46,146 bases of DNA from contig CALCUN010000026.1 in NCBI GenBank assembly GCA_937906975.1, positions 1 through 46,146 on the forward strand. Direction: 5' to 3'. The position numbers and the translations under genes are program-made. The DNA comes from an uncultured Bacteroidales bacterium. GTDB lineage: Bacteria; Bacteroidota; Bacteroidia; Bacteroidales; P3. Under the pieces are notes generated by a model. The model did not search any database and was not told where the DNA came from. It saw nothing but the letters and a program-made list of their open reading frames with translations. Below are positions 701 to 36,062 of the stretch, one piece after another. How positions within the stretch are numbered: position 1 is the first letter of the stretch; each line of letters begins with the position of its first letter.

Positions 701-2040
701 AATCGTTTATTTGTTTTATTGGATTTATTCTAAGTATTGTTTTTTCTTTTTCACAAAACAAGTTTTACGCCTCTGATATTGTGCAAGCAAAAATCGACTC
801 TGCTCGCTATATGTCTGCAATTACATATATTGAAGGTGTAGAAAAGGTTGATATTGACACCGCTTGGAGTCTTTATCCTCAAAAGGCATTTTGTTATTAC
901 AAGATTGGAAAGCACAAAGAGGCTCAAGCCTGTCTTAAAATCGTAGAAAGAGAGGATTATCAAAACGATTTGAGTGAGATTTTATCTATTTTTTATCTTT
1001 CTACCAAGCCTAAAGAAATGCAAGAAACGATTGATAGACTTGAATACTTGCTTGATGAAGGAGAAAAGGAGTTTTTTAATAAGATAACTATACTTAGTAC
1101 AACGGATTTAAAGAAAGTTGCAAATTGCATTAACGGCTACATTGCCTTTCTTGATGAAGATGACGATAAGACAAAGTATAATTTAATGGGAGCTTACGTT
1201 GATTTTCGTGCAAAGGAGAGTATGAGTGCCTACAACAAGTTATCTACCTTTATTGACGAGGAGCCTACTGCATTGTCTTCGTTTTTGATGGGGATTGTAA
1301 AGCGTGAGCAAAAGGAATACTTCTCTTCTATTTCTTATTTTAATCAAGCGGAAAATTTAGGCGACAATTCAGGAGATTTGTATTTTAATAGAGCTATTTC
1401 AAAGGGATTTGAAAAAGATTACTTCGGAGCAATTGATGATTTAAACTCAGCTTTGGAAAGGAATGCTAAGTCTGAGTATTATTATGTGCGAGGCATTTGT
1501 TTTAATCACATCTTTGAATACAAACACGCTTTAGATGATTTGAATATTGCAATAGATATGTGTGATACTATTGCAGAATATTTCAATCATAGAGGTATTG
1601 TTTTCACGAATTTGGAAATGTTTGCTGATGCTCTCTTTGAGTTTCAAACCGCAATCAAGATGAAACCTGATTTAGAGTTTATAAACAACAACATAGGCTT
1701 AGCCTACGAGCATACAGGTAATATAAATAAGGCTGTTGAGCATTATAAAGTTTCAATAAAGAAAGAGCCATATTATAGTGATTCGTATTTTAATTTAGGA
1801 AGACTCTATTACGAAATTGGAAAATATAAAACGGCTATAAAATATTTAAAAGAGGCTTATCTTCTCAATGCAAACTTTGGAGATATTACACACATCTTGG
1901 GTTTGTGTTATGCAAAAACTGATGATATAGAAACAGCCTGCTACTATTTACAAATTTCAATAGAGGCAGGCTGTAAACCAGCTATTAATTCACAAAGCGA
2001 ATTTTGTCAAAAAGAAGCTGTGGAAGAAGAGGAAGAATAA
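697..2040 (+). CDS. secreted/periplasmic TPR-repeat protein
   Basis: 447-residue protein with an N-terminal signal peptide (MKSFICFIGFILSIVFSFSQ) and a C-terminal half of tetratricopeptide repeats, roughly residues 200-430, with recurrent A..DL..A and G....A..Y..A patterns. The tail is acidic (EAVEEEEE). TPR arrays are protein-protein interaction scaffolds; nothing here names a partner. An in-frame GTG lies 18 nt upstream at 679, but ATG at 697 puts the signal peptide at the N-terminus and gives a 4-nt overlap with the upstream gene. The stop codon abuts the stop of the convergent gene at 2041 with no spacer. Confidence 0.8.
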   Translation: MKSFICFIGFILSIVFSFSQNKFYASDIVQAKIDSARYMSAITYIEGVEKVDIDTAWSLYPQKAFCYYKIGKHKEAQACLKIVEREDYQNDLSEILSIFYLSTKPKEMQETIDRLEYLLDEGEKEFFNKITILSTTDLKKVANCINGYIAFLDEDDDKTKYNLMGAYVDFRAKESMSAYNKLSTFIDEEPTALSSFLMGIVKREQKEYFSSISYFNQAENLGDNSGDLYFNRAISKGFEKDYFGAIDDLNSALERNAKSEYYYVRGICFNHIFEYKHALDDLNIAIDMCDTIAEYFNHRGIVFTNLEMFADALFEFQTAIKMKPDLEFINNNIGLAYEHTGNINKAVEHYKVSIKKEPYYSDSYFNLGRLYYEIGKYKTAIKYLKEAYLLNANFGDITHILGLCYAKTDDIETACYYLQISIEAGCKPAINSQSEFCQKEAVEEEEE

Positions 2041-2502
2041 TTACTTCTTGTCTTCTGAATGATCGTGAGAGTGATCATGTCCACAACCATCGTGATGCTC
2101 GTGAGAGTGAGAGTGATCGTGTCCATGGTGATGTCCACAACCAGATTCTAATCCTCTTGCTGTGTTTTTGCAACAGTTAGGCAACTTAGCAACCGCTCTT
2201 TCGTTTGGTAAAAAGTTTGTAGTTTCAAATCCTGCTTGTGCTAATGCCTTTTCTATCTTCTCTTGATTTGTTTTCTTTGTTTTGAATGTTACAAGAACTG
2301 ATTTTGTTATTGGGTTTATTTGAAAACTCTTAACTCCCTTTTCGTATGCTAAGGTTTTTTCAATTAAAGGATCAGATTCTGAACAACAATATCTTGGTAA
2401 AGAAATTTGAACTGTTTGTTCTTTTGGTTGTTCTTGTTCTTGTGCATATCCAAATGTTAATGCAATAATTGCCAATACGGCAAATAAGAAAATCTTTTTC
2501 AT
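2041..2502 (-). CDS. secreted HMA-like metal-binding protein with His-rich tail
   Basis: 153 residues. Signal peptide (about residues 1-20, ending TFGYAQ), then a fold resembling a heavy-metal-associated domain, about residues 30-95. It has PRYCCSES where classical HMA domains have MxCxxC, then LIEKTL, GVKSF, a beta-strand KSVLVTFK, and the terminal helix KIEKALAQAGFET. The last 40 residues are a His/Cys/Asp-rich tail (GCGHHHGHDHSHSHEHH, then a second GCGHDHSHDH block) expected to bind Zn, Ni, Cu or Co. It lies 19 nt downstream of a TonB-dependent receptor on the same strand and is probably co-transcribed, which suggests periplasmic metal capture or sensing. Metal identity is not determinable from sequence. 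Confidence 0.8.
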   Translation of the reverse strand: MKKIFLFAVLAIIALTFGYAQEQEQPKEQTVQISLPRYCCSESDPLIEKTLAYEKGVKSFQINPITKSVLVTFKTKKTNQEKIEKALAQAGFETTNFLPNERAVAKLPNCCKNTARGLESGCGHHHGHDHSHSHEHHDGCGHDHSHDHSEDKK

Positions 2503-2521
2503 ACTTATTTTATTCTTTTAA

Positions 2522-4780
2522 TTATTTAATATTCCAACGTAAACCTGCGTAAATCAATCTTCCCATTACAGGTGCATATACCACAGAGGCATCAAATTTT
2601 CTTGTAAATATTTCATCTACTCCTATAACAGGAACTTCTTGTGTGTGGTTAGTGATGTTTTCAACTCCTACATATATATCTAAATTCTTGAATTTTCTTG
2701 TGATTTGTCCTAACATATATATGTATGGGTCTGCATATCCTTGTTTCTCTCCTACGTTTAGTGGTATTCTTTGTTTGCCATTGAATTGTGTTGTAAGGTC
2801 AAACATCCATTTATCATACTTTGTCTTGTATGAAAGCACTACTAATCCTTTCCATTTTGCAACGTATGGTTTTTCCATCAATTCTCCGTGATATGTAGTC
2901 TTTACATCGTTGTATCTTCCTGCTAAGGTAATATTAAATCCTTTAAAAGCCTCTACATTAACATCTAATTGTGCTGCATTAGAGTAGCTCTTTCCTTCAA
3001 GATTGTAAAAATGTACTTGATTAGCATCTTGGTCTAAGTCCATTACAACTTGATTTACAAAGTTTGTGTGATAGTAATCTAAGGCTATTGTCATTTCTCT
3101 GTCGTCTGAAAGTGGTAATGAATACGATAGATTCACTCCTGCATTGTATGCTTCTTCCATTTCTAAGGCTTCTTCTATGATTATATCTCTTGAAGATGCT
3201 AATATACCGAAGTTATCTGCTATTAGATTTGCTGAACGAAAGCCTTTTCCTGCTGCTCCTCTAAAAATCAAATCATCTGTTATCTTCCAACGGAAATGAA
3301 GTCTTGGTGTAATTATGTGTTTTGCGTATGCTGTGTTGTAATCGTAACGAACACCTGCTGTTGCTACGAATATTTTATCATAAATAAAGTTAAATTGTCC
3401 GAATACTCCAGGTACGATTTCTTCTTTAACGAAATTGGTACGCAAATCCCCTATTTGATTATTAGAAGAGAAAAGATTTGCTCCTAAATATGGCATTGAG
3501 TAAAGATTTTCTTGCACATCAGTATAGCGGAAACTTGCTCCAAAGTCCACATTGTGTCCTCCACGAACCATTGTATTTACAAGAGCATTTGCATATACGT
3601 CTGTTTCTATTCCTTCGTAATTTGTAAGTCCATAATATGCGTCTTGTTTAAAGTATGTTGCAGAAAGTTGTGTTCCAAATGAAGATGTATTTCCAAGAGG
3701 TGCGCCATTCTTTGTAAAGAAGTGTACTCTATCAACTGTTCCTCCTAATCCGTAAATAGAATCACTTCCTCTCATATCTTCTGTGAAAGCCATTTGTCCT
3801 CCTAAGCGTTCTTCACGAGTGTAATTGATTAAGGTTTGACTACATAGTCCGTCATGAACTTCATAGTTCCAACGATTTGCAACGTTAATTTGTGTTTGAG
3901 AAGGATAATCTCTAAATCCATCTCCTTGTCCTGCGTTTCCAAGATGGTCAAAGGATTTAAAATTATTATATGTTCCGTAAACAAATATTCCTGTTGCTAA
4001 ATTATCGTTTATAATGTGGTTGGCCTTAACGTTAAATTCGGTTTTCAATTCGTTATTCAAATAAGCATTGAAAGAAAACAAGTCCGCTTTTTGAGGTTTG
4101 TCATATTCCAAATCTATAATTCCTGTAATGGTTTCGTAACCGTGCTTAACTGTTGCAACACCTTTACTAACTGATATGCTTTCCATCCAATTTCCTGGAA
4201 CGTATGAAAGACCAAACGGAGCGGATAGCCCTCTTAAAAATGGCATGTTTTCTAATAGGATTTGAGAGTAAACACCTGTCAATCCCAATAATTGAATTTG
4301 TTTACTACCTGAAACAGCGTCTGAATAACCTACATCAACTGATGCAGAATTTTCAAAACTTTCTCCAAGATTACAACAAGCCAAATGCTTTAATCCTTCT
4401 CCTGAAATTATTTCTTTGTTTTCTAATGAAGTTTTTGAAAGATATGTACTTTTCATCCTTTCTCTTACCTCAAAGGTTGAAAGGACTGTTCCTGTTTGTT
4501 TAAGGTAAATTTTTAGATTTGTGTTGTCTTTTATTTCAACTGTGTCATTTGCATAACCTGTATAACTAAATATTAGTTTTGTTTGGTTAGCTTTCTTTTT
4601 TTCTATTGTGAAATTTCCATCTATATCGGAAATTGTTCCACCTCCTCCTTGTAACCAATAAATATTTGCTGAAGGTAGAGTTTCTTTTGTTTTGTTATCG
4701 TAAATTACTCCTGTAATTTTTTGTGATAAAGCACCTAATGATATACTTAAAAAGGCTGCTAAAAATAAATATTTCTTCAT
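2522..4780 (-). CDS. TonB-dependent receptor, probable metal-related
   Basis: 752-residue outer-membrane receptor. Signal peptide at residues 1-19; CarboxypepD_reg-like domain about 20-105 (ITGVIYDNKTKETLPSANIYW); plug domain about 115-230 with an ACCNLGESFENSASVD segment; then a 22-strand-type barrel ending in an aromatic/basic C-terminus (YAGLRWNIK). The CC pair in the plug parallels the CC pair in the downstream HMA-like protein (gap 19 nt). This receptor type with a neighbouring HMA protein recurs in Bacteroidota, so a heavy-metal or metallophore substrate is a reasonable inference. No SusD partner is present, which argues against a glycan role. The length is normal for TBDRs. Confidence 0.87.
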   Translation of the reverse strand: MKKYLFLAAFLSISLGALSQKITGVIYDNKTKETLPSANIYWLQGGGGTISDIDGNFTIEKKKANQTKLIFSYTGYANDTVEIKDNTNLKIYLKQTGTVLSTFEVRERMKSTYLSKTSLENKEIISGEGLKHLACCNLGESFENSASVDVGYSDAVSGSKQIQLLGLTGVYSQILLENMPFLRGLSAPFGLSYVPGNWMESISVSKGVATVKHGYETITGIIDLEYDKPQKADLFSFNAYLNNELKTEFNVKANHIINDNLATGIFVYGTYNNFKSFDHLGNAGQGDGFRDYPSQTQINVANRWNYEVHDGLCSQTLINYTREERLGGQMAFTEDMRGSDSIYGLGGTVDRVHFFTKNGAPLGNTSSFGTQLSATYFKQDAYYGLTNYEGIETDVYANALVNTMVRGGHNVDFGASFRYTDVQENLYSMPYLGANLFSSNNQIGDLRTNFVKEEIVPGVFGQFNFIYDKIFVATAGVRYDYNTAYAKHIITPRLHFRWKITDDLIFRGAAGKGFRSANLIADNFGILASSRDIIIEEALEMEEAYNAGVNLSYSLPLSDDREMTIALDYYHTNFVNQVVMDLDQDANQVHFYNLEGKSYSNAAQLDVNVEAFKGFNITLAGRYNDVKTTYHGELMEKPYVAKWKGLVVLSYKTKYDKWMFDLTTQFNGKQRIPLNVGEKQGYADPYIYMLGQITRKFKNLDIYVGVENITNHTQEVPVIGVDEIFTRKFDASVVYAPVMGRLIYAGLRWNIK

Positions 4781-19802: not shown

Positions 19803-20048
19803 CGACATAAAAGCGTTTTTGCTTATACTTGGTTGTCTGAAATCTGGAAAATTTCACACAAACTAACCATATGTAAAGCAGTAAACGCTCACGAACAATC
19901 TTCGTGGGCTTTACTTATTTGGTTAGTTAGGTATTCCAGAACCTCAGACAACGATAAGAAAAAAGTCCCACGTTTTTTTATGCCTTGAAGTCAAAGAGAG
20001 AAAATAAGTAATCGCCATTCGGGACTTGGGCAAAGAAAGAAAATAAGT
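19803..20048 (+). ncRNA. candidate structured RNA / 5' leader with alternative helices
   Basis: Nested complementary arms form a long interrupted hairpin: CATAAAA/TTTTATG (outer), CTTAT/ATAAG, GTTGTCTGA/TCAGACAAC, TCTGGAA/TTCCAGA, ACTAACC/GGTTAGT, GTAAAGC/GCTTTAC and the tip CACGAA/TTCGTG at about 19888-19905. Downstream, GGGACTT near 20020 can pair either with AAGTCCC near 19963-19969 or, as GACTTGGGC, with GCCTTGAAGTC near 19982-19992; the two pairings exclude each other. The extended-hairpin shape and size of the first domain (about 180 nt) recall 6S RNA, but I cannot identify it. It is downstream of a strong promoter and upstream of an orphan gene. It could be a stand-alone sRNA, a cis-regulatory leader, or both. 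Confidence 0.55.
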
Positions 20049-20054
20049 TAAAAT

Positions 20055-20726
20055 ATGATAGAAAAAAAATGGGAAAATAGTGGAATAATACTTAATGAAG
20101 TATTTGGTACTAATAATAATCAATTATTGCCAGAAATAATTAATTTTAAAAAAGCTGATAATTGTAAAATATATATTCATTTGAATAGAGATAGCAATAC
20201 AACCAACGATGTAATAGGTAAATATTGTAATAAATTTGAATGGATGTTAATGATAAAAAAATTATATGAGAATAAAGGCATATATGAAGTTATTGGATTA
20301 GCATCTGAATTGTTTGGAAACATAAGAGAAACTCACAAAGAAAGTTATGATTTGATTTGTGAAAATCCAAAAGATATATCGCCTATATACAATGGTGTAC
20401 ATATTAATAAAATATTCTCTAATATAGATATAGTATATACTGCAGAACATGTTTTTATTCCTAAAAATAATTTAAGAATATTTATTATTACAAATGAAAA
20501 TGACATAGGATTATCTAAAACTTGTTTTAATACTTGTCACTCCGTTTTTGTAACTAATATTAAGAATAAAAAACAATTTAATGAAGAAATAAGTAATGCA
20601 GATTATATGAAACTAAAAGATATGATACTTGAATATGATTTATGGCAAGAGGTACAACTTTTTAAAAATATTGATTTAAAAAACATGTCAAATCTTTTTG
20701 AGGTGAAAATAAATGAATTAAAATAA
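20055..20726 (+). CDS. orphan hypothetical protein
   Basis: 223 residues, acidic/Asn-rich, without signal peptide or membrane helix. No family recognised. Noticeable parts are KIYIHLNRD, a Cys pair SKTCFNTCHSVF near residue 155, and a helical C-terminus. Base composition is lower in GC than the flanking housekeeping genes, which suggests an acquired gene. The start is the ATG after AAAATAAGTTAAAAT; there is no SD. It follows the structured leader and may be controlled by it; the next gene starts 32 nt later on the same strand. Confidence 0.6.
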   Translation: MIEKKWENSGIILNEVFGTNNNQLLPEIINFKKADNCKIYIHLNRDSNTTNDVIGKYCNKFEWMLMIKKLYENKGIYEVIGLASELFGNIRETHKESYDLICENPKDISPIYNGVHINKIFSNIDIVYTAEHVFIPKNNLRIFIITNENDIGLSKTCFNTCHSVFVTNIKNKKQFNEEISNADYMKLKDMILEYDLWQEVQLFKNIDLKNMSNLFEVKINELK

Positions 20727-20758
20727 TAAGTAAAAATAATTAAACAAAAAAAATAGAT

Positions 20759-22306
20759 ATGAAAAATTTAAAAGTAATTTTATGCATTATTGCTATGATG
20801 ATGATTTCTGTTGTAGCAAATTCTCAAAACATTCAAACATATAGTGGTAATATGACTAATCCTAGATGGCTTGCTGATTTAACACCTCCTGACTATAAAG
20901 CAATAGAAGGAATTTACTCTTATTATGAAGATGAAGAAGGAAATAGAATTATTCATGGTAAATTTACCGTAAAATTTAAATATCAAGGTTATCCTGGTAT
21001 GGGTATGGAAAGAATAATTTCCGGAGACTATATTCATGGGAAACGTAGTGGTAAATGGAGTATAATAATTGACGGAGATTACATTTCAGAATTTCAATAT
21101 AAGGAAGGTGTTTTAGATGGTCCATTTTCTGTTTATGGATCGAATGGTGAGAAAATTTTCCCTTATGCTGGCACACTATTTAATAGTGCAATTTACAAAG
21201 GTCAATTTTCTAATGGTATAATTACAGGAGATTTAACTATCGAATACCTGCTAGATGAATCTAAGGATGTTAAAATAGAAACAGGTCTACTTGATTATGT
21301 GGGTCGTAAACAAGGAGAATGGAAAAGTGTACTAAAAGGTAGAAATGTTAATCCTTACGAAATATATACATTATATTATAACGATATAAAATTATATGAA
21401 AAAGTAAAAGATATTTCTTCGGGTAATATTAAGTATAAATACAAAATTTCAGATGAAATAACAAAACCTGCCGATACAATTAAAATCAGTATAACAGGAA
21501 AAAAATGTGAATTTTTAGGAGAAGATTTATTTAATGTCGGTGGAACATTGTGTGTAGCCAATTGTAATGAAGTTTATTATGGGGCATATGATGAATATGG
21601 TTTTAATGTTTTAAGAAATATTTGCAAAAAACGGACAATGTGTCAATTTATTGATATAGAAAGTGAAAAATATAAAGAGTTAATAAAAACAACAGATGTA
21701 TATTTAGAACGTGAAAGAATAGAGCAAGCACGTGAAGATAGCATTCGTAACGCTGAGAAAGCACGTAAAGACAGCATCTATAAAGCTGCTATAGAACGTA
21801 AAAGAATAGAGAGAGAACGTCAAGACAGCATCCGTAACGCTGATATAGAATATAAAAATAATTTATCTATAGTATTAAGAGATATATTTGCAATAGAAGG
21901 GTTTTACAAAAATAAACATTCAGCAATAGTATCATCTGTTGTTAATAAAGATGTTAGAGGATTGAAATCTGTTTCTAATGAAAAACAACGTTTACCAGAG
22001 CATAAAAAAATAAAAAAAGGTAAAATAGAGAATGAATATATCGTTTTAATTACGGAAGAGGGAGAAGAAATTCGGGAAGTATTCAAAGAAGAATATTTAA
22101 AAACTTGCAAAGGTATAATTGGACAAAATTATTTTAAAGAATATAACGTTAATGTAGCATCAAATAAAGATTGTACTTTATTGATTGTATATGATTTAAA
22201 TGATAAAATACCATTTATGCTTGTAAAAGTCAATAATAAATGTCAAGCATTAATGTATTATACTATTAAATCAAAGATTGGTAAAAAACTAATAACTAAA
22301 GAATAA
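20759..22306 (+). CDS. secreted MORN-like repeat protein with coiled coil
   Basis: 515 residues. Signal peptide at residues 1-22 (to VVANSQ). Residues 60-215 contain MORN-like strands (HGKFTVKFKYQG, GDYIHGKRSGKWSII, YKEGVLDGPFSVYG, YKGQFSNGIITGDLTIEY, GRKQGEW). A charged coiled coil, about 318-370, repeats ERxRxDSIRNA-type heptads typical of Bacteroidota envelope proteins. The C-terminal 130 residues form a separate unrecognised domain. MORN repeats here are likely structural; function unknown. AT-rich like its upstream neighbour. Confidence 0.7.
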   Translation: MKNLKVILCIIAMMMISVVANSQNIQTYSGNMTNPRWLADLTPPDYKAIEGIYSYYEDEEGNRIIHGKFTVKFKYQGYPGMGMERIISGDYIHGKRSGKWSIIIDGDYISEFQYKEGVLDGPFSVYGSNGEKIFPYAGTLFNSAIYKGQFSNGIITGDLTIEYLLDESKDVKIETGLLDYVGRKQGEWKSVLKGRNVNPYEIYTLYYNDIKLYEKVKDISSGNIKYKYKISDEITKPADTIKISITGKKCEFLGEDLFNVGGTLCVANCNEVYYGAYDEYGFNVLRNICKKRTMCQFIDIESEKYKELIKTTDVYLERERIEQAREDSIRNAEKARKDSIYKAAIERKRIERERQDSIRNADIEYKNNLSIVLRDIFAIEGFYKNKHSAIVSSVVNKDVRGLKSVSNEKQRLPEHKKIKKGKIENEYIVLITEEGEEIREVFKEEYLKTCKGIIGQNYFKEYNVNVASNKDCTLLIVYDLNDKIPFMLVKVNNKCQALMYYTIKSKIGKKLITKE

Positions 22307-27008: not shown

Positions 27009-27044
27009 TAGTCTATATCGCATAACTTGAAGACTTATTTGACT

Positions 27045-28556
27045 ATGAATCAATTAAAATCAGGAGCAGTCTTATCTTACTTAACACTTATTCTAAATAG
27101 TGTTATAGCCTTGCTTTATACACCTTTTATGACTCTAAAACTCGGTCAAAGCGAGTACGGTCTTTATTCTTTGGTAGCCTCTATCATAAGCGTGCTTACA
27201 GTAATGGACCTTGGTTTTGGCAATGCCGTCATTCGCTATACGGCAAAGTATAGAGCCGAAAACAAACAAGAGGAAATCAATAAGATGTTTGGAATGTTCT
27301 TTGTGATATTCTCAATAATTGCCTTGATAACACTTGGAATTGGAGCTGTGCTTTATTATAATTTAGACACTATTTTCTCTCAAAATATGAGCGAAAGCGA
27401 GCTTGGAAAGCTAAGAATAATGTTCCTACTTCTTATCTTCAACCTTGCTTTTACCTTTATAATGAGCATTTATCGCTCTGCAATCGTAGCATACGAAAGA
27501 TTTGTATTTCAAAAACTTATAAACCTAATTAGAATCATTCTAAACCCAATAGTAATGGTTGTCCTCCTCTCCTATGGTCACAAAGCAATCACAATGGTAG
27601 TTGTGCAAACAATCTTTAACGTGCTTACACTACTTTTAGATTACTATTACTGCAAAAGTAAGCTAAACATAAAACTACAATTCGCTAAATTCGATTTCAA
27701 ATTTCTTAAAGAAGTAAGCGTTTACTCCTTTTGGGTATTCTTAAACGTAATAATGGATAGAATTTATTGGAGTATGGGACAAAGCGTTGTAGGAATTTAT
27801 TGTGGAGCAAAGCTTGTAGCCGTTTATGGCATAGCAATACAAATCCAACAAATGTATATGTCATTCTCAACCGCCATTTCGGGAATCCTACTTCCAAGAA
27901 TAACCTCTATGACAAGCCAAAAAGGAAGTGAAAAACAAGTATCGGATTTATTTATCAAAACAGGACGATTACAATTCATAATAATGAGTTTCATACTTTC
28001 GGGCTTTGTGGTTTTTGGTCGTCAATTCATAAACCTTTGGGTAGGAAACCAGTATGATTTAGCCTATTACGTTTGCGTTCTCTTCTTTGTACCATTATTA
28101 GTTCCGCTAATTCAAAACGTAGCCATAAGTATTTTGCAAGCACGCAATCAAATGAAATTTCGTTCCTTGCTTTATCTTGGAATCTCCTTAGCAAGTTTCG
28201 TTGCAAGCCTACCTTTAACAAAATATTACGGAATTTTAGGATGTGCAACCGCCACTTCAATCGCCCTTTTCTTAGGACACGTCTTAATAATGAATGTATA
28301 TTATCACAAAAAAGTAAGTTTAGATATTATATCTTTTTGGAAAGAAATATTAAAAATGTCATTCGCCCCTATCCTACTTAGTTTGATAGCATTTTATCTA
28401 ATAGATTATTTAATAATAAACACTTGGATTGAATTTATTGTTAGTATTGTTGTTTTTTCTCTTGTTTATGGAATAATATTTTGGCTATTCTCTATGAACA
28501 CTTACGAAAAAACATTGGCGTTAAGCCTTGTAAATAAAATCAAAAAAAAGAGATAG
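27045..28556 (+). CDS. Wzx-type oligosaccharide/lipopolysaccharide flippase (MOP family)
   Basis: 503 residues with about 14 membrane segments. Opens with the polysaccharide-exporter pattern GAVLSYLTLILNSVIALLYTPFMTLKLGQSEYGLYSL and MDLGFGNAVIRYTAKYRAE. These transporters flip undecaprenyl-linked glycan units across the inner membrane. ATG at 27045 is preferred to a TTG 18 nt upstream because family homology starts there. It lies 4 nt before the FrhB-like gene, forming a two-gene surface-glycan unit without local glycosyltransferases. Confidence 0.88.
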   Translation: MNQLKSGAVLSYLTLILNSVIALLYTPFMTLKLGQSEYGLYSLVASIISVLTVMDLGFGNAVIRYTAKYRAENKQEEINKMFGMFFVIFSIIALITLGIGAVLYYNLDTIFSQNMSESELGKLRIMFLLLIFNLAFTFIMSIYRSAIVAYERFVFQKLINLIRIILNPIVMVVLLSYGHKAITMVVVQTIFNVLTLLLDYYYCKSKLNIKLQFAKFDFKFLKEVSVYSFWVFLNVIMDRIYWSMGQSVVGIYCGAKLVAVYGIAIQIQQMYMSFSTAISGILLPRITSMTSQKGSEKQVSDLFIKTGRLQFIIMSFILSGFVVFGRQFINLWVGNQYDLAYYVCVLFFVPLLVPLIQNVAISILQARNQMKFRSLLYLGISLASFVASLPLTKYYGILGCATATSIALFLGHVLIMNVYYHKKVSLDIISFWKEILKMSFAPILLSLIAFYLIDYLIINTWIEFIVSIVVFSLVYGIIFWLFSMNTYEKTLALSLVNKIKKKR

Positions 28557-28560
28557 GAAA

Positions 28561-29745
28561 ATGTGTATAATAAATAGAGTTGCCAAAACGGATTGTTGTG
28601 GTTGTAGTGCGTGTGTTAGCGCTTGCCCTAAGCAATGCCTTGAAATGAAAAGCGACAATCAAGGTTTCTTACAAGTAAAACTTTCAAAAAACAACTGCAT
28701 TGAATGTGGAATATGCGAAAAGGTATGCCCTATTCTTGCAGAGAAAAACGAAAACGAAAGAGAGATAGAAGCCTTTGCCGTAAAAAACAACTCAGAAAGC
28801 GAAAGAAACTTATCATCATCGGGAGGCGTTTTCGTAGCCCTTGCAAATAACGTATTAGACAAAGGAGGCGTTGTTTGCGCAGCAAGATTTGATGAAAACT
28901 TCCACTTAATTCACGACTTCTGCGAAAGAAAAGAAGACTTAAAACCATTTCTTGGCTCAAAATACCTTCAAAGCGATATGAGGGATTGTTTCAAAAAAAC
29001 AAAAGAGCTACTAAACGAAGAAAGATTAGTGCTTTTCGTTGGAACACCTTGCCAAATAATGGGATTGAAACTCTATCTTAGAAAAGAATATCAAAACCTT
29101 ATTGCAACAGAAGTCGTATGCCATGGAGTACCTTCGCCAATGGTTTGGGAAAAATACTTAGACGAAGTATGCAAGCAAAAGAAAATTTCCTTAAACGAGG
29201 TAAAAAACATATCATTCCGCAACAAAGACAAATCATGGAGGGTGTTTAATCTAAAAATTGAAGGAAAAGAAAAAACAATCCTAAAAGAAAGCCTACACGA
29301 TAACATATATATGAGAGGATTTCTAAAAAACCTTTTCCTAAGACAAAGCTGTCATCATTGCCCTGCAAAGAATTTCGCTTCAATGGCGGATATAAGCCTT
29401 GCAGACTATTGGGGCATTGATAGATTTCACCCAGAAATGGACGACAACAAAGGAGTTAGTGCAGTAATCCTTTACAATAAGAAAATATCTCTTAGCTTTA
29501 AGAAATTATCTCTTAGCATTAAAGAAACAAACCTAAGAGATATTTTATCAAATAATTCAGCCCTTGCAATATCTGCAAAAGCCCACCCTAAAAGAGATGA
29601 GTTTTTTGAAAAAATAAACAAAGAAGAATTTCACAAATTAGCAAACGAATTTGTCGGAGAACCAACATTAGAGAAGATAAAACGAAAAACAAGATGGTTT
29701 CTTTCGGACATAAAATCTAAGATATTAAAAAAGGGAGGTTTTTAG
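28561..29745 (+). CDS. FrhB-like (coenzyme F420 hydrogenase beta-subunit family) iron-sulfur protein
   Basis: 394 residues. N-terminal double 4Fe-4S ferredoxin domain (CCGCSACVSACPKQCLEM and CIECGICEKVCPI, residues about 12-60). Then the FrhB N and C domains: LSSSGGVFVALANNVL, FVGTPCQIMGLK, CHGVPSPMVWEKYL and SCHHCPAKNFASMADISLADYWG. In bacteria without F420 such proteins sit in exopolysaccharide clusters and are thought to be flavin- and FeS-dependent reductases acting on glycans. The last codons (KKGGF-stop) form the left arm of the terminator. Confidence 0.87.
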   Translation: MCIINRVAKTDCCGCSACVSACPKQCLEMKSDNQGFLQVKLSKNNCIECGICEKVCPILAEKNENEREIEAFAVKNNSESERNLSSSGGVFVALANNVLDKGGVVCAARFDENFHLIHDFCERKEDLKPFLGSKYLQSDMRDCFKKTKELLNEERLVLFVGTPCQIMGLKLYLRKEYQNLIATEVVCHGVPSPMVWEKYLDEVCKQKKISLNEVKNISFRNKDKSWRVFNLKIEGKEKTILKESLHDNIYMRGFLKNLFLRQSCHHCPAKNFASMADISLADYWGIDRFHPEMDDNKGVSAVILYNKKISLSFKKLSLSIKETNLRDILSNNSALAISAKAHPKRDEFFEKINKEEFHKLANEFVGEPTLEKIKRKTRWFLSDIKSKILKKGGF

Positions 29746-29765
29746 CCTCCCTTTTTGATTTATTT
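29719..29765. repeat. 47-bp direct repeat, left copy
   Basis: Perfectly identical to 30796-30842. It contains the hairpin AAAAAGGGAGG/CCTCCCTTTTT (29728-29738, 29746-29756) and runs from AAGATATT to GATTTATTT. The two copies are 1077 bp apart and bracket the nuclease gene. Confidence 0.97.
29728..29756 (+). terminator. terminator of the flippase/FrhB unit
   Basis: 11-bp perfect stem AAAAAGGGAGG/CCTCCCTTTTT with loop TTTTTAG. It overlaps the FrhB-like stop codon and also works for the minus-strand nuclease gene. Confidence 0.88.
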
Positions 29766-30774
29766 ATTTAAGATTATCTTCTATAAGTTGTTTTAATTCT
29801 TCTTTACTTGGCAAATAAGTTTGGTATTTGCTTGCAAAAATTTGATTATTATCCTTTGGCAAAGTGATTTCTACTATTGCATCACTTTTATCCGTGCAAA
29901 GCAAAATTCCTATTGTAGGGTTTTCTTCTTCTGTCTTTACAAAGCGATCGTAATAGTTTACATACATTTGCATTTGTCCCAAATCCTGATGTTTAAGCGT
30001 ACCTCTCTTTAAGTCAATCAATACAAAAGCCTTTAATAAGCGATTATAAAAAACTAAATCTACCCTAAAATGTTGTTCATCAAAAGTAAACCTAACTTGT
30101 CTTCCTACAAAAGTAAATCCTTTTCCTAATTCCAATAAAAATGTCTGCAAATTATCTATCAAACGTTGCTCTAATTCACTTTCACTGTATTGAGGTAATT
30201 CTTGCAATCCAAGAAATTCCAAAATATATGGGTCTTTAACAACATCCTCTGCTTTTTCTATAATTTGCCCTTTTTGAGACAATTCTTTTATTCCTTCTTT
30301 ATCACGACTTAATTGTAAGCGTTCGTATAATGAACTATCAAATTGTCTTTGTAATTCTCTCAAACTCCAATTGTTTTCTATTGCTTCTATTTCATAAAAC
30401 CTACGTTCTTCTGGGTTATCTATACGCATAAGTTTCAAATAATGAGACCAACTAAGAGAAAATTGTAAATTCGTCAACAGTGTTGACGAATTTGTTTTGG
30501 AATATGTTTTATAAAAATATCTCATCCTATCAAGATTTTCAACAGAAAAGCCTTTTCCAAATTTATTTGTTAAACGTATAGAGAGTTCTTTTAACACAGC
30601 TTTTCCATATTCGGCACGCAGTTTTCCTTTTTGCTCTTCTTCTACAATCATTCGCCCTATCTCATAATAGGTATAAACCATTGCAGTATTTATTGTCGCA
30701 ACTGTTCGTTTTTTTGTTTCCTCTATCAATTGCTCTATACGTTCTGCTAAATCTGTTTTTACAATCTCGCTCAT
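29764..30774 (-). CDS. YhcG/DUF1016-family PD-(D/E)XK nuclease
   Basis: 336 residues. N-terminal DUF1016_N winged-helix/helical domain (ATINTAMVYTYYEIGRMIVEEEQ, FSVENLDRMRYFYKTY, LSWSHYLKLMRIDNPEERRFYEIEAIENNWSLRELQRQ). The C-terminal nuclease domain (about 190-330) has candidate residues Asp239 (FRVDLVFYN), Asp254-x-Lys256 (VLIDLKRG) and the QMQMYVNYYDR helix. Members occur near restriction-modification and other mobile defence genes; the catalytic substrate is unproven. Both ends overlap or adjoin the 47-bp direct repeats, so the gene looks like a cassette inserted between the FrhB-like and S46 genes. A perfect 12-bp inverted repeat lies inside the gene (30467-30493). Confidence 0.88.
   Translation of the reverse strand: MSEIVKTDLAERIEQLIEETKKRTVATINTAMVYTYYEIGRMIVEEEQKGKLRAEYGKAVLKELSIRLTNKFGKGFSVENLDRMRYFYKTYSKTNSSTLLTNLQFSLSWSHYLKLMRIDNPEERRFYEIEAIENNWSLRELQRQFDSSLYERLQLSRDKEGIKELSQKGQIIEKAEDVVKDPYILEFLGLQELPQYSESELEQRLIDNLQTFLLELGKGFTFVGRQVRFTFDEQHFRVDLVFYNRLLKAFVLIDLKRGTLKHQDLGQMQMYVNYYDRFVKTEEENPTIGILLCTDKSDAIVEITLPKDNNQIFASKYQTYLPSKEELKQLIEDNLK
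30467..30493. repeat. 12-bp inverted repeat inside the nuclease gene
   Basis: AAATTCGTCAAC (30467-30478), loop AGT, GTTGACGAATTT (30482-30493). It encodes the NSSTLLTN segment in a variable region just before the conserved LSWSHYL block. Confidence 0.85.
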
Positions 30775-30801: not shown

Positions 30802-30842
30802 TTAAAAAAGGGAGGTTTTTAGCCTCCCTTTTTGATTTATTT
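30796..30842. repeat. 47-bp direct repeat, right copy
   Basis: Identical to 29719-29765. It overlaps the stop codon of the S46 peptidase gene (30837-30839) and places a terminator between that gene and the nuclease. Confidence 0.97.
30805..30833 (-). terminator. terminator of the S46 peptidase gene
   Basis: Same AAAAAGGGAGG/CCTCCCTTTTT hairpin as at 29728, immediately after the peptidase stop on the minus strand. Confidence 0.85.
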
Positions 30843-32987
30843 TACGATTTTCATTTCTTTTATCAAGTTTGTTGCTCCTGCATACTTGTCTATTATGAAT
30901 AGAACGTAACGTATATCTACTGAAATACATCTTTGAAGATCTGGATTGAAAGCTATGTTTCCGCTCATTGCTTCCCAGTTTCCGTCAAATGCTATTCCGA
31001 CTAATTCTCCCTTAGCATTGATTGTTGGAGATCCAGAGTTTCCTCCTGTTATGTCAAGGTCTGCTATGAATGCCACAGGAACGCTTCCGTTTTCTGCGTA
31101 TTGACCATAGTCTTTTGTTTCATAAAGAAGTCTAAGCTTTGAAGGAACGGTAAATTCCCAAGAAGAGTTGTCTTCTTTTGCCATTACTCCGTCTAATGTT
31201 GTGATATACTTATAGGTAATTCCGTCTTTTGGTTCGTATGGACGTACTGTTCCGTATGTGTAACGGATTGTAAGGTTTGCATTTGGTGCAAAATGTTTGT
31301 TTTTATCCATTTCCATTACTCCTTTTACGAACAAACGATTTGAACGATTTAGGCTTTCTCTTTCTTCTCTAACAGAGGCAAGTTTTTCGTTAAGGTTTGA
31401 AATGAATTGGTTTGTTAATATGTAAGCTGGGTCGTTAGTGATTTGTGTTACATCAAGGTTGTCTAATAGTTTGTTAAGATTTTCTTGTTCTACTAATAAT
31501 GATGTTTTGAAAATATCGTTTGCTATTTGCTTGAAGTCGTAACCGTTTGCAAAGGCATTTGATAAAAATTCTGGTGATTGGTGAAGGATTGGAACGTTAC
31601 GGAAGAATACGTCAAGACCTGCTGCAAATAATTTTTCTTCTGTTATAATGTTGTAATCCTTAAACACACCTGCAAATTGTGTTTTAAGTTTTGCTGCAAT
31701 TTCTTTTGCTTTTTCTGATTTTCCGTTTTTGCTTAATTCTTCTTCAAGCGGTCTTAGTTGTCTTGCTATTGAGAATACTGATGAGCCTCTTAGGATTGCT
31801 TCGTTAGTGTAAACTCTTAACAATTCATATTCGCCTGTTGCTTTATATGCTGCTGCAAGATTTTTCAATACTTCGCCATATTCTGCTTTGCGAGATGCGT
31901 CTTTTTCAATCCACTGTGCAAAACGGTTTTCTAAGGCTTGTTTTGAGCTTTTTACATCAAGGTTTTTCAAACATGTTGTTTGTCCTTGGTAGAATTTCCA
32001 ATAGTTTGAAAGTGATGCAAACTTACTTGCGTATTGTATTCTTACTCTTGGCTCTTGTAACATATCGGCTTGCATTACGTTTCTTAAAGCTGTACGAGCT
32101 GTTACAACAGATGGGTTGTAAGTATCTATGGCTTGTTCTACACCAAACGATGTTAAGAAACGGTCTGTTGTTCCTGGATAACCTATTATCATAACAAAAT
32201 CATTTTCTTTTACACCTTTCAATGAGATTGGTAAGAAATGTTTTGGTTTCAAAGGAACATTGTCTTTTGAATACTTAGCTGGCTTTCCGTTTTTGTCAGC
32301 ATAAACTCTAAATACTGAGAAATCGCCTGTGTGTCTTGGCCACATCCAGTTGTCTGTATCGGCTCCGAATTTTCCGATTGAAGAAGGTGGAGCTCCTACT
32401 AAACGTACGTCTTCGTAAACCTCATATACAAATAGTATGTATTGGTTTCCGTTGAACATTGTAGAAACTTCTGCTGTGTAGGTTGTACCTTTTTCTGTTT
32501 CTTCTTTTATTTTCTTAGAGTTTGCTCTAATTATTTTTGCTCTTTCATTCTCATTCATTTCGTTTGTTACGCCTTTTAATACTTGGTCTGTAACATCTTC
32601 CATTCTGATAAAGAATTTAGCTGTCAATCCTGGGTTTGGAAGTTCTTCACTTTGGTTATACGCCCAAAATCCATTGCTTAAATAATCGTGTTCTACGGTT
32701 GAGTGTTGTTGAATTTGAGGATAACCGCAGTGGTGATTAGTTAAAATCAATCCTTGGTCAGAAACAATTTCTCCTGTACAACCTCTACCAAATTGAATGA
32801 TAGCATCCTTTAAAGAAGCGTTGTTAATGTCGTAGATTTGTTTAGAGGTAAGTTTCAAACCTTTCTTTTTCATTTCTTTATATGTCTGTTTGTCAATCGA
32901 CATCAACAGCCACATTCCTTCATCTGCTTTTACCAATGGTGAAAAAGCAAATAACGCTAATAAAAATAACGTTGTAATTCTTTTCAT
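30837..32987 (-). CDS. S46-family dipeptidyl-peptidase, DPP7-like
   Basis: 716 residues, periplasmic/surface serine exopeptidase. Signal peptide to about residue 21. GCTGEIVSDQGLILTNHHCGY carries the catalytic His (85/86). NWMWPRHTGDFSVFRVY is the conserved Asp region. TGGNSGSPT has nucleophile Ser651. Residue 669 in FDGNWEA is Gly, the position that distinguishes DPP7 (Gly, hydrophobic P1) from DPP11 (Arg, acidic P1) in Porphyromonas. The enzyme removes dipeptides from oligopeptides, suiting a peptide-fermenting lifestyle. A strong promoter lies at 33023-33053. Confidence 0.92.
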   Translation of the reverse strand: MKRITTLFLLALFAFSPLVKADEGMWLLMSIDKQTYKEMKKKGLKLTSKQIYDINNASLKDAIIQFGRGCTGEIVSDQGLILTNHHCGYPQIQQHSTVEHDYLSNGFWAYNQSEELPNPGLTAKFFIRMEDVTDQVLKGVTNEMNENERAKIIRANSKKIKEETEKGTTYTAEVSTMFNGNQYILFVYEVYEDVRLVGAPPSSIGKFGADTDNWMWPRHTGDFSVFRVYADKNGKPAKYSKDNVPLKPKHFLPISLKGVKENDFVMIIGYPGTTDRFLTSFGVEQAIDTYNPSVVTARTALRNVMQADMLQEPRVRIQYASKFASLSNYWKFYQGQTTCLKNLDVKSSKQALENRFAQWIEKDASRKAEYGEVLKNLAAAYKATGEYELLRVYTNEAILRGSSVFSIARQLRPLEEELSKNGKSEKAKEIAAKLKTQFAGVFKDYNIITEEKLFAAGLDVFFRNVPILHQSPEFLSNAFANGYDFKQIANDIFKTSLLVEQENLNKLLDNLDVTQITNDPAYILTNQFISNLNEKLASVREERESLNRSNRLFVKGVMEMDKNKHFAPNANLTIRYTYGTVRPYEPKDGITYKYITTLDGVMAKEDNSSWEFTVPSKLRLLYETKDYGQYAENGSVPVAFIADLDITGGNSGSPTINAKGELVGIAFDGNWEAMSGNIAFNPDLQRCISVDIRYVLFIIDKYAGATNLIKEMKIVK

Positions 32988-33061: not shown

Positions 33062-33124
33062 AAATTATTTCTTTGCTTTAAGAAATTTTTTCTTTACTTT
33101 AAGAAATTTTTTCTTTGCTTTTTT
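33062..33124 (-). repeat. three 21-bp repeats upstream of the S46 promoter
   Basis: Units 33062-33082, 33083-33103 and 33104-33124 share AAATTTTTTCTTTGCTTT on the plus strand (A-rich on the strand of the downstream gene). A CTTAG-containing stretch follows to about 33145. The acyltransferase stop codon (33094) lies inside unit 2. Confidence 0.83.
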
Positions 33125-34241
33125 TCTTTTTTTCTTAGAAAAAAATCCTCAAAGTAACGTTTTGATAAAGAGGATATTACAATCGTAAGTGAAAAGACTG
33201 AAATTAGAAAGGTTATTATTAACAAACTATTTGGAATAAAGGCTTTTAGTTTGGAGAATATAAGGACTACGAAAAACATAACGCCCATGTGATACATATA
33301 AATGCCGTATGAGATTTCTCCTAAAAAGAATAAGGCTTGGTTTTCTTTCTTTTCTTTGAATGAAAGGGTATATGAAATTATTATATAAAGATATAATAAA
33401 GAGATTATCAAAGGTGAAAGAACGGGTGTTTTGAAAACGAAATTCCAAATAGGGTTATCAATATTTATATTAAAACAAAGGTAGATTATTACTAAAAGAT
33501 AGATAGTATATTTTATAGGTTTACTAAATAATATCTTGGTTTCCAATCGTTTATAGGGGGGGTAATAAATAAAAGATAAGCTCCTAAGGCTCCTATTGCC
33601 ATTGTTTCAAAGCTGTAATTGTGAATTAAAAATGCGTAAACGTTATTTGAAATATCTATTCCTTGAATTTGTATATAGATTGCAAGTAATAGTTTTATTG
33701 CTATAATAAATAAGATTGGTATAAGGCTTTTTTTGATAAATTTAAACAAGGGTGCCCAAATTAAATAGAAGACTTCCTCTACTCCTATTGACCATAATGG
33801 TTCTAAAAAGTGATTTCCGTAATGGAAAAGTACGAGTATGGGGAAGAAAAATAAGAAATAGTACCATGTTTGAGTGAGTGTGTAAGGCATTTCATATTCT
33901 ATGTTAAATATGGAAAAGAAAAATGGTAGAAAAATTGTACCTACGAAAATCAAAAGAAAGTAAAGAGGCCAAATCCTCTTTACTCTCCTTAAATAAAACT
34001 GCTTTATAGCTATTGTTTTTGTTTGATTCTTTTCTTTTAAAAGAAGATATGTTATAAGAAATCCGCTTAAAACAAAGAAAAAACTAACTGCATTTGCTCC
34101 GTTTCTAAACAAGCTGAAACTTTCTATGTCAAATAATTCATATTTTCTTCCAATAGTTGCACTATGATGAAGCACCACCAAAGAGGCTGCAAGAAATCGT
34201 AAAGTATTTAACCCTTTGAAATGAGTTATGCTTTTATACAT
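33094..34241 (-). pseudogene. acyltransferase-3 (OafA-like) gene split by a C7 tract; probably phase-OFF
   Basis: Two overlapping frames together encode one membrane O-acyltransferase. The N-terminal part (34241-33513, 242 codons) has FKGLNTLRFLAASLVVLHHS, NAVSFFFVLSGFLITYLL, RRVKRIWPLYF and PLWSIGVEEVFYLIW. The C-terminal part (frame ending 33094) has LFFLGEISYGIYMYHMGVMF. The switch is at a run of seven C (G on plus, 33556-33562). Adding one C, or removing two, would join the frames into a 383-codon gene of normal family length. As written, the product stops after LFITPPINDWKPRYYLVNL. The family transfers acetyl or other acyl groups to surface glycans. The start overlaps the upstream lipoprotein stop. 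Confidence 0.85.
33556..33562 (-). repeat. homopolymeric C7 (G7 on plus) slippage tract
   Basis: Seven identical G/C bases in otherwise AT-rich coding DNA, exactly at the point where the acyltransferase frame shifts. Confidence 0.85.
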
Positions 34242-34419
34242 TTTGTGCAGTTAGGTAATAGGTGTTTTGTTGTTGTGGTTTTTGGTAAGAAAATGTTGGA
34301 CAATTACATTTTTTCTTTCTTGTCTTTTGCATCTTTGCCCCTCTTGAACTTGTAGAGCAAGAGAGACAAAGAATTGATGCTAATAATAATATTGCTATAC
34401 TTGTTATTCTTATTCGCAT
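34234..34419 (-). CDS. small lipoprotein
   Basis: 61 residues with signal peptide MRIRITSIAILLLASILC and lipobox LCLSC (Cys about 21). A short basic mature part follows, including KKKCNCPTFSYQKPQQQ. No family named; the CNCPTF motif looks conserved in type. It overlaps the protease stop upstream and the acyltransferase start downstream (8 nt), so translation of the four genes 36655-33094 is probably coupled. Confidence 0.7.
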   Translation of the reverse strand: MRIRITSIAILLLASILCLSCSTSSRGAKMQKTRKKKCNCPTFSYQKPQQQNTYYLTAQNV

Positions 34420-36062
34420 AATATGACTTGTTGTGTTTGTATTGCGTTATCTGTTATTACTTTAATGGTATAAACTCCTTTTGTTAAGTGTTTTAAGCTC
34501 AATTGTTGGTTTTTGTTTGTTGTTGCGTGTTCTTCTATCACTCTTCCTGCTTGGTCATAGATTTTTATTATAGTTGAGCTTGTTGGTTCTGTGATTGCGA
34601 TATTTATTACGTCTTTTGTAGGATTTGGATATAGTTTTACTGAATTGTTTTCTGCGTTTACATCTGATAATCCTGATTCATAATCCATTCCATATACGTT
34701 ATTAGTTCCTGTTTCTGCTGGGTCTAACCATGGTTTTAGTTTTCTTGCATTTGCATTGCCGTTTGATTCCCAGTGATACGACATTTTTCCGTATAAGTCA
34801 TATTTGTAACTTGCAGATACATCACAACCTGATGCTCCTCCTGTAAGTGTGCCTATGATTTGTCCGTTTTCATTAAATAATGCTGAGCCAGAAGAACCGC
34901 CTTCCATAATTCCCCAACCGTTTTCAGTCTCTACCCAATCTACATACCAGTGTGTGGCTGAGTTTGAACCGTATGATGAACTTTGTATGCGAGAGGTGAA
35001 TGTGGAAATCTTTTTAACGTCTCCGCTTGGGTGGTGTATGCCAACGCCGCTATTGACTGCTGTATTTCTTCTATCCCATCCGCACCAGTATGGGTCGTAT
35101 GTTTGTGGTATGTCATCGTTTAATAAGAACAATGCAAAGTCTGAACCATTTGAAGCATAAGTATTGTCGTATGCTTTTACGCTTGTTCCTGTCAAAGATT
35201 TAGAACGGCTTGGTTCTACTCCTGCTGTGCTACAACCACTGTTTTCATATTTAAAATAAAATACAAATTGGCTGTAATAACTGTTTGAAGCAACGTCTTC
35301 AATGCAGTGTGCTGCACTTAAAACGTATGGTGCAAAGTCATAATTTGTGTTGTTTACCAATGTTCCTGTACACCAACCTATGTAATAACTGCTCATTCTT
35401 ACTTGTATTCTACACACTCCTCTTTGTTGGTTACGGAAATTATCTCCTTCTGAACAGTTTACGTTTACATTACAGTCGCCTGAGGAACGATATTCGTCAG
35501 ATAGTTTTGTTATGCTACGATATGCGTAACCTATTTCTGTAAGTTCTATTTGTGGTTGTTGGATTTCTGTGTTTGGTTGATAGTATTCAAGAATTATTTT
35601 ATCGCCTTCTATGTATTCTGTTGCGAATGTGTTAAATTCGTTGTTGTTTCTGTGTGTGAAAGCTCCTAAAATTTTTGTTCTCTCTGGGTTATAGACAAAG
35701 AATTTACCTGTGCGTGGTAGTTGGAAGTTGTCTGAGTAAAAGATTAAGGCTTGTGCGTCTTGGCTTTCTACGCTTAGCGTCCACACAGTAGCGTCTGCGG
35801 TTTGTTTTTTATCGGCTAATTCAAAGAAGTCTTTGTAAATAGGCATTATAACTCCAAAGCGCATCATCTTATTCTCTAAATCATTTTCTAAATCCTCTGC
35901 TATAACTTCTGTTAAGTCGGGTTTGTCAATTTTTAACGTTGTTATATTTTGATAATCAAATCCTTCTAATTTGTAAGTGTAAGGATTTTCATTAGTGCTT
36001 AATTGAGAAAAAGCACTAAAACTCATAATGAGTGAAATAATTGCAAAAATTGTTTTTTTCAT
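34410..36062 (-). CDS. secreted trypsin-like serine protease with T9SS type A sorting domain
   Basis: 550 residues. Signal peptide (to FSQ, residue 20). Unrecognised N-terminal region about 25-180. S1-type catalytic domain about 205-455 with LSAAHC (His252), GSDFALF (Asp308) and EGGSSGSALFN (Ser391), plus several Cys pairs, resembling lysyl-endopeptidase/Achromobacter protease I relatives. The C-terminal type IX secretion signal, about 475-550, has LYPNPTKDVINI, IYDQAGRVI and LTKGVYTIKV. Predicted to be exported by T9SS and surface-attached or released. The start overlaps the coaE stop (ATGA). Confidence 0.9.
   Translation of the reverse strand: MKKTIFAIISLIMSFSAFSQLSTNENPYTYKLEGFDYQNITTLKIDKPDLTEVIAEDLENDLENKMMRFGVIMPIYKDFFELADKKQTADATVWTLSVESQDAQALIFYSDNFQLPRTGKFFVYNPERTKILGAFTHRNNNEFNTFATEYIEGDKIILEYYQPNTEIQQPQIELTEIGYAYRSITKLSDEYRSSGDCNVNVNCSEGDNFRNQQRGVCRIQVRMSSYYIGWCTGTLVNNTNYDFAPYVLSAAHCIEDVASNSYYSQFVFYFKYENSGCSTAGVEPSRSKSLTGTSVKAYDNTYASNGSDFALFLLNDDIPQTYDPYWCGWDRRNTAVNSGVGIHHPSGDVKKISTFTSRIQSSSYGSNSATHWYVDWVETENGWGIMEGGSSGSALFNENGQIIGTLTGGASGCDVSASYKYDLYGKMSYHWESNGNANARKLKPWLDPAETGTNNVYGMDYESGLSDVNAENNSVKLYPNPTKDVINIAITEPTSSTIIKIYDQAGRVIEEHATTNKNQQLSLKHLTKGVYTIKVITDNAIQTQQVILCE

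What the first reader, a model, noticed from the sequence alone, without database searches (positions are those of the whole stretch)
33094..34241. Acyltransferase frameshifted at a C7 tract: probable phase variation of a surface glycan modification
Seen: two frames with the N- and C-terminal halves of one acyltransferase-3 family protein meet at C7 (33556-33562). One extra C or two fewer restores a 383-codon ORF of normal family length. Established: slipped-strand mispairing in poly-G/C tracts switches surface genes, including O-acetyltransferases, in many host-associated bacteria. Inference: this gene is in the OFF state in this sequence.
Basis: partly seen in the sequence, partly recalled or inferred. 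Interest (0 to 1): 0.75.

Follow-up and report, generated by a model that had tools for sequence, protein, structure and literature searches.

The report
Switchable sugar-decorating enzyme, caught off
A gut bacterium's gene for a membrane enzyme that probably adds small acyl groups to surface sugars is cut in two at a run of seven Cs, and because close relatives carry the same gene both whole and cut, it most likely flips on and off by copying slips at that run.

Summary
In detail: an acyltransferase-3 (AT3, PF01757) gene is split at C7, 33556-33562; the upstream frame matches profile positions 2-200, the downstream frame 219-324. The host is an uncultured gut Bacteroidales. Phase variation is supported, not proven. 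Two of 6 congeneric genomes carry the same split at C7. Fourteen protein clusters at 90-94% identity are unbroken; one split allele's downstream half equals an unbroken relative's, 149 of 149 residues. On a tree of downstream halves the state changes at least 6 times, 5 forced by supported branches. Both halves show purifying selection. Against: C7 is short; one such run per window is not beyond chance; one congener keeps a remnant and three show no match; no reads or DNA of unbroken alleles were reachable, so recurrent loss remains possible. AT3 phase variation is known (oafA of Haemophilus influenzae), and C-run slippage in an acetyltransferase-related gene was already suggested for Bacteroides fragilis. 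The wider lead is an excess of long poly-G/C runs in this genus.

The parts
33556..33562 (-). C7 homopolymer (G7 on +) at the frame break; lies in the codons of a Thr-Pro-Pro loop that is particular to this clade
   Evidence: Thr-Pro-Pro in 11 of the 14 closest unbroken clusters (Thr-Pro in P0011 and P0014, neither in P0013) and in none of 11 further relatives looked at
33513..34241 (-). upstream frame of the AT3 acyltransferase, 242 aa, with R15-X10-H26 and RXXR (86-89); its last residues, after the tract, are out of frame
33094..33546 (-). downstream frame of the AT3 acyltransferase (remaining C-terminal part), 150 codons from the first TTG
34234..34419 (-). small lipoprotein-like ORF (my reading of its N terminus), 61 aa, overlapping the AT3 start by 8 bases
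   Evidence: a similar small ORF precedes AT3 in G003
34410..36062 (-). trypsin-like secreted protein with T9SS sorting tail, overlapping the small ORF by 10 bases; first gene of the apparent operon
   Evidence: open homologue beside AT3 in G003 and G005
30837..32987 (-). S46 peptidase (Dpp7-like) downstream of AT3; its C-terminal 150 aa served as control
27027..29745 (+). two genes of possible glycan export/modification (flippase-like; Fe-S protein), the nearest such genes, about 3.3 kb from AT3
   Evidence: matches far below the curated cut-offs

Best explanation
The locus is a simple-sequence contingency gene: an AT3 membrane acyltransferase switched on and off by slipped-strand changes in a poly-C tract that encodes a short loop about 60% along the protein. 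In this sequence it is in the OFF phase. Translation runs through the N-terminal part with the R-X10-H and RXXR motifs, leaves frame at C7 and stops after 242 residues, so the remaining C-terminal part of the domain is not made. In relatives the frame is continuous (363-390 aa), and that enzyme probably acylates an envelope or secreted glycan. Shown: the split, its place, the coexistence of split and unbroken alleles, and selection on both halves. Inferred: slippage as cause, reversibility, glycan acceptor and any fitness benefit.
For: Two parts of one PF01757 domain meet at the tract. Two of 6 congeneric genomes carry the same gene split at exactly C7, both halves otherwise open. Fourteen clusters at 90-94% identity to the N half are unbroken, 363-390 aa. 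Of the 9 database C-half ORFs at 80% identity or more, 7 begin at the same codon just after the tract (P0123 among them reads the same as G005's half, so 6 are new) and 7 have a longest contig over 5 kb. The control piece of Dpp7 listed 6 fragments at 80% or more, 115-225 aa with 4 different starts, 0 of 6 with a longest contig over 2.5 kb. Split/unbroken partners: P0122 v P0001 149/149, P0125 v P0010 137/139, G003 v P0012 133/138. C-half tree: at least 6 changes of state, 5 forced by supported branches. dN/dS of the C half 0.12-0.20, of the N half 0.11-0.13. P0011 differs by one codon at the tract loop. A 66% ortholog (G181) is split at (TA)9 instead.
Against: C7 is short for a fast switch (recalled). 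All 3 alleles read as DNA have the same length; tract lengths of unbroken relatives are unknown, only their proteins were seen. One G7/C7 per window is not improbable. The gene is dispensable: G001 keeps a remnant with a large internal deletion and 3 of 6 congeners show no match, though MAGs may be incomplete. Split/unbroken labels are slightly clustered on the tree: as few changes in 32 of 500 shuffles for the unbroken group, 77 of 500 for the split group; without P0013 and P0014 the count is 5. The window's own best unbroken partner is only 129/139. Low dN/dS shows past selection, not present switching. In the control, fragments below 80% identity do occur on long contigs (e.g. P0153 79%, 12,965; P0191 69%, 231,195). 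The gene is not in a glycan cluster.
Confidence: 0.7

Rival explanations
1. Recurrent irreversible loss: the enzyme is often disadvantageous, the C tract is simply its most mutable spot, and split alleles are young dead ends that never revert.
For: G001 remnant and no match in 3 of 6 congeners. Other splits elsewhere in related AT3 genes: G181 at (TA)9, P0015 and P0021 with shifted C termini (by eye), C-half ORFs P0132-P0141 with unbroken counterparts (P0134 v P0026 136/137). Low dN/dS fits young losses too.
Against: Splits in the closest genomes fall at repeats (3 of the 4 genomes with a match of at least 60% identity; the fourth is open), though the G001 deletion does not and the DNA of P0015, P0021 and P0132-P0141 was not seen. 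The loop at the tract is particular to this clade and kept in 11 of 14 unbroken clusters. Long G/C runs are in excess genus-wide.
Confidence: 0.22
2. Sequencing or assembly error in the homopolymer; the gene is really unbroken.
For: Homopolymers are error-prone on some platforms (recalled); the window's source and platform are unknown.
Against: The same split recurs in G003 and G005 and in 7 database clusters with the same start, one of them G005's; the T9SS neighbour is open in both genomes.
Confidence: 0.05
3. Programmed -1 frameshifting (or transcriptional slippage) makes the full protein from the C7 allele.
For: C CCC CCT in the upstream frame formally fits the X XXY YYZ slippery pattern (recalled) and is kept in all 3 C7 alleles.
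Against: No consistent downstream structure: z 0.00, -1.76, -0.24 (nested structures only). Unbroken relatives exist at 90% identity or more, so the shift is not a required part of expression.
Confidence: 0.03

Closest known systems
oafA of non-typeable Haemophilus influenzae (lipooligosaccharide O-acetylase, an AT3 protein)
   Same: AT3 enzyme, phase-variable through a repeat; ON and OFF alleles between isolates; some alleles lack the repeat (passages seen in PMC3938747, PMC9558356 and PMC11868660)
   Different: There a 5'GCAA tetranucleotide repeat in a pathogen; here a short poly-C inside the coding sequence at a late loop, in an uncultured gut Bacteroidales
Acetyltransferase-related genes of the PSI/9 polysaccharide locus, Bacteroides fragilis 638R v YCH46
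   Same: Same order of bacteria: an acetyltransferase-related gene frameshifted by a length change in a run of Cs in one strain; the authors suggest slippage could vary the polysaccharide (passages of PMC3090145)
   Different: A run of 4 Cs in a polysaccharide cluster, two strains; AT3 membership not stated in the passages seen; no allele series
oafB of Salmonella
   Same: AT3 acetyltransferase under phase variation (passages of PMC9558356)
   Different: Epigenetic switch, not a frameshift; carries an SGNH domain
Homopolymer contingency genes of Campylobacter, Helicobacter and Neisseria
   Same: Homopolymer frameshift switches (listings with abstract starts)
   Different: Different phylum; tracts there are usually longer (recalled)
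Invertible promoters of Bacteroides capsule loci
   Same: Phase variation of surface glycans in the same order (passages of PMC11868660 and PMC3090145)
   Different: DNA inversion, not repeat slippage

Membership tests
Acyltransferase-3 (PF01757) | Profile match across the domain | tested here: met
   N half 2-200 at 69.9 bits (cut-off 31); C half 219-324 at 25.6 bits, below the cut-off alone
Acyltransferase-3 (PF01757) | R-X10-H motif in helix 1 and RXXR motif (as given in passages of PMC9833829 and PMC9558356) | tested here: met
   R15-X10-H26 and R86VKR89
Acyltransferase-3 (PF01757) | Ten transmembrane helices, acyltransferase activity | not tested
   No structure was predicted; no PDB sequence match at E 0.01 for the N half
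Simple-sequence contingency (phase-variable) gene | Repeat tract in the reading frame with the frame break at the tract | tested here: met
Simple-sequence contingency (phase-variable) gene | Both states occur in near-identical relatives, no other inactivating change | tested here: met
   (state of database alleles inferred from ORFs; the window's own closest unbroken partner is 129/139)
Simple-sequence contingency (phase-variable) gene | Tract length differs between states at the DNA level | tested here: inconclusive
   3 of 3 alleles read as DNA are C7 and split; unbroken alleles seen only as protein
Simple-sequence contingency (phase-variable) gene | Reversible, frequent switching within a clone | not testable with these tools
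   needs reads or cultures
Programmed -1 frameshift gene | Stimulatory RNA structure downstream of a slippery site | tested here: not met
   pseudoknots not tested

The most novel reading that the evidence does not exclude
This gut Bacteroidales genus has a multi-gene poly-G/C switching repertoire, a strategy chiefly known from pathogens: tracts in AT3, PglD-type, glycosyltransferase, fibronectin-domain surface-protein and restriction-specificity genes, plus tracts inside promoter spacers that could tune expression by changing the distance between promoter boxes.
Probability: 0.4. Interest if true: 0.7.

Novelty: new member of a known kind. Interest (0 to 1): 0.45.

Why it matters
Phase variation in gut Bacteroidales is mostly described as DNA inversion. 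A repeat-slippage switch on a probable glycan-modifying enzyme, with an allele series behind it, would strengthen a second mechanism that was only suggested for one Bacteroides fragilis gene (PMC3090145, passages). It bears on a question that a 2025 review leaves open: whether multi-locus phase-variable genomes are really restricted to pathogens (PMC11868660, passages). Tract lengths are directly countable in metagenome reads.

Tried and rejected
Own-genome search: none is held. Relatives in viral contigs: 14 pattern hits, none a relative. PDB by sequence, N half: nothing at E 0.01. Programmed frameshift: no consistent structure. Contig ends as the source of C-half ORFs: unlikely, because 7 of 9 share one start; the Dpp7 control gave 6 fragments at 80% or more among the 120 listed of 3852, with 4 different starts (two pairs share one) and short contigs, but fragments on long contigs below 80%. 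Promoter-spacer poly-G scan: 9 distinct sites in 8 of 190 genomes, against 4 genomes for the reversed control pattern; a weak excess, so no claim. Clustering of split/unbroken labels: close to random, as switching predicts but no proof. Rows left out of the tree: P0123 (reads the same as G005's half), P0128 (75%, N-truncated), P0129 (later start), P0130 (102 aa), and P0131-P0148 (47% or more... 35-55% identity, distant). Literature: searches; listings only, often partial (20 of 97, 15 of 32, 12 of 23, 12 of 18), open-licence library. The one relevant Bacteroides statement found is in PMC3090145 (passages); I first missed it and corrected the novelty text.

Full report
Observation. The coding strand is minus. 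C7 (33556-33562) is where two frames of one acyltransferase-3 protein meet. The upstream frame covers PF01757 positions 2-200 and the downstream frame 219-324. The upstream product would be 242 aa and carries both motifs reported as essential in the family, R15-X10-H26 and R86VKR89 (motifs from passages of PMC9833829 and PMC9558356). The downstream TTG is only the first usable codon. By itself one G7/C7 per window is not remarkable (28 of 100 shuffles), though it is the only G/C run of 6 or more in the window.

Host and surroundings. The nearest relative found is a yak-rectum MAG of a Bacteroidales bacterium (95% protein identity in the S46 peptidase; L001). No genome is held for the window. 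AT3 follows a T9SS-tailed trypsin-like gene and a 61-aa lipoprotein-like ORF; successive ORFs overlap by 10 and 8 bases, so the three look like one operon. The next gene downstream is Dpp7-like. A flippase-like gene and an Fe-S protein lie about 3.3 kb away on the other strand (weak matches). AT3 is therefore not inside a glycan cluster, and the acceptor is an inference.

Split alleles elsewhere. Of the 6 genomes held in the genus of L001, G005 (95% identity to the N half) and G003 (89%) have the gene, and both are split at exactly C7; G001 keeps a remnant with a large internal deletion; G002, G004 and G006 show no match with either half. G001 and G003 also hold a distant, open AT3 paralogue at 30% identity. 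In the family (190 genomes, 30 with any match), the 4 genomes with a match of at least 60% identity are G005, G003, G181 and G166; the first two are split at C7, G181 at a (TA)9 repeat, and G166 is open. Of the 28 rows at 43% identity or less, 27 have no stop inside the match.

Unbroken alleles and the switch pattern. The N half has 14 clusters at 90-94% identity with one continuous frame of 363-390 aa. The C half as query found 28 clusters; of the 9 at 80% identity or more, 7 start at the same codon directly after the tract (P0121-P0127; P0123 reads the same as G005's half) and 7 have a longest contig over 5 kb. The equal-sized piece of Dpp7 listed 6 fragments at 80% or more (120 listed of 3852), of 115-225 aa, with 4 different starts and no contig over 2.5 kb; below 80% some control fragments do have long contigs, such as P0153 and P0191. 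So the C-half ORFs are most likely true splits. P0122 (split) and P0001 (unbroken) agree at 149 of 149 residues; P0125 and P0010 at 137 of 139; G003 and P0012 at 133 of 138. The window's own best unbroken partner is further off, 129 of 139. On a tree of 25 C halves (14 unbroken, 9 split, 2 outgroup; left-out rows under Tried and rejected), state changes at least 6 times, 5 of them forced by well-supported branches; 5 without P0013 and P0014. Shuffled labels need 8.5 (unbroken) or 7.5 (split) changes on average; 32 and 77 of 500 shuffles were as low.

Selection. Between the three C7 alleles, dN/dS is 0.127, 0.121 and 0.113 for the N half and 0.196, 0.166 and 0.120 for the C half (the last with a high dS of 1.36). 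The C half stays open for 142-153 codons, and the gap counts (10, 11, 1) equal the differences in length. The half that is not translated in the OFF state has been kept. This speaks against old pseudogenes but does not separate switching from young, repeated losses.

The tract. Thr-Pro-Pro stands at the tract in 11 of the 14 closest unbroken clusters; P0011 is one codon shorter, P0014 has Pro to Phe, P0013 has another loop; none of 11 further relatives looked at has it, one of which (P0021) could not be placed.

Genus context. G/C runs of 7 or more number 3, 3, 4, 4, 13 and 10 in G001-G006. In G001-G005 the 27 runs are 11 of length 7, 7 of 8 and 9 of 9; with decay ratios of 0.15, 0.2 and 0.28 per base (0.13-0.28 seen for short runs in the same loci) 0.6, 1.1 and 2.1 runs of 9 or more are expected (P 5e-9, 6e-7, 1.4e-4). 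Some flanks are GC-richer (up to 0.47 in G002) and may be contaminants. Of 10 ORFs at or beside runs scanned: a restriction specificity protein (G9), two fn3-domain proteins (G9, G8), a PglD/hexapeptide protein (G8), and both pieces of a G006 glycosyltransferase split at G11; but also a NusG-domain ORF, an M17 peptidase and two without a family. Many runs are intergenic or in ordinary genes, so not every run is a switch. Three runs end 10-11 bases before a TAnnTTTGC box; a family-wide scan gave only a weak excess over its control.

Mechanism and verdict. The best reading is an OFF-phase allele of a slippage-switched AT3 gene (0.7). Recurrent irreversible loss is the serious rival (0.22). The closest known cases are oafA of H. 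influenzae, an AT3 gene switched by a tetranucleotide repeat (passages, PMC3938747), and in the same order an acetyltransferase-related gene of Bacteroides fragilis frameshifted in a C run, for which slippage was suggested (passages, PMC3090145).

Noticed in passing
L093 (G181), minus-strand position 2076: A 66%-identical AT3 ortholog is split at a (TA)9 dinucleotide repeat a little upstream of the C-tract position, both halves otherwise open.
   Followed up: partly
L179 (G006 C15), 2511-2521: A glycosyltransferase (weak PF13439 part, then PF00534) is split into two frames at a G11 run.
   Followed up: partly
L148 (G002 C28), 2532-2540: G9 run in frame after the first recognition domain of a restriction specificity protein (PF01420; Specificity models in PADLOC), a place where slippage would drop the second half.
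   Followed up: partly
L153, L160, L173 (G003, G001, G005): Surface-type proteins carry in-frame G8-G9 runs near the N terminus; fn3 domains found in L153 and L173, L160 is alike by eye and was not scanned.
   Followed up: partly
L159, L167, L171: G8-G9 runs end 10-11 bases before a TAnnTTTGC promoter-like box, i.e. inside a presumed spacer (promoter consensus recalled).
   Followed up: partly
L152 and L172 (G003, G005), about 2471-2499: A C9 run lies in the same gap in two species, between what reads like aspS and a secreted-protein-like gene (names by my reading; no Pfam match for the latter in L172).
   Followed up: no
L158 (G001), 1497-3203: A gene that reads like mutS2 (recalled, no family call) ends at 569 aa with a further piece downstream in another frame.
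   Followed up: no
window 29764-30774 (-): YhcG/DUF1016-type PDDEXK nuclease (PF06250, PF17761), best PADLOC match to candidate defence family PDC-S02.
   Followed up: no
window 20001-22000: GC drops to 0.27 with strong positive GC skew around two uncharacterised ORFs.
   Followed up: no
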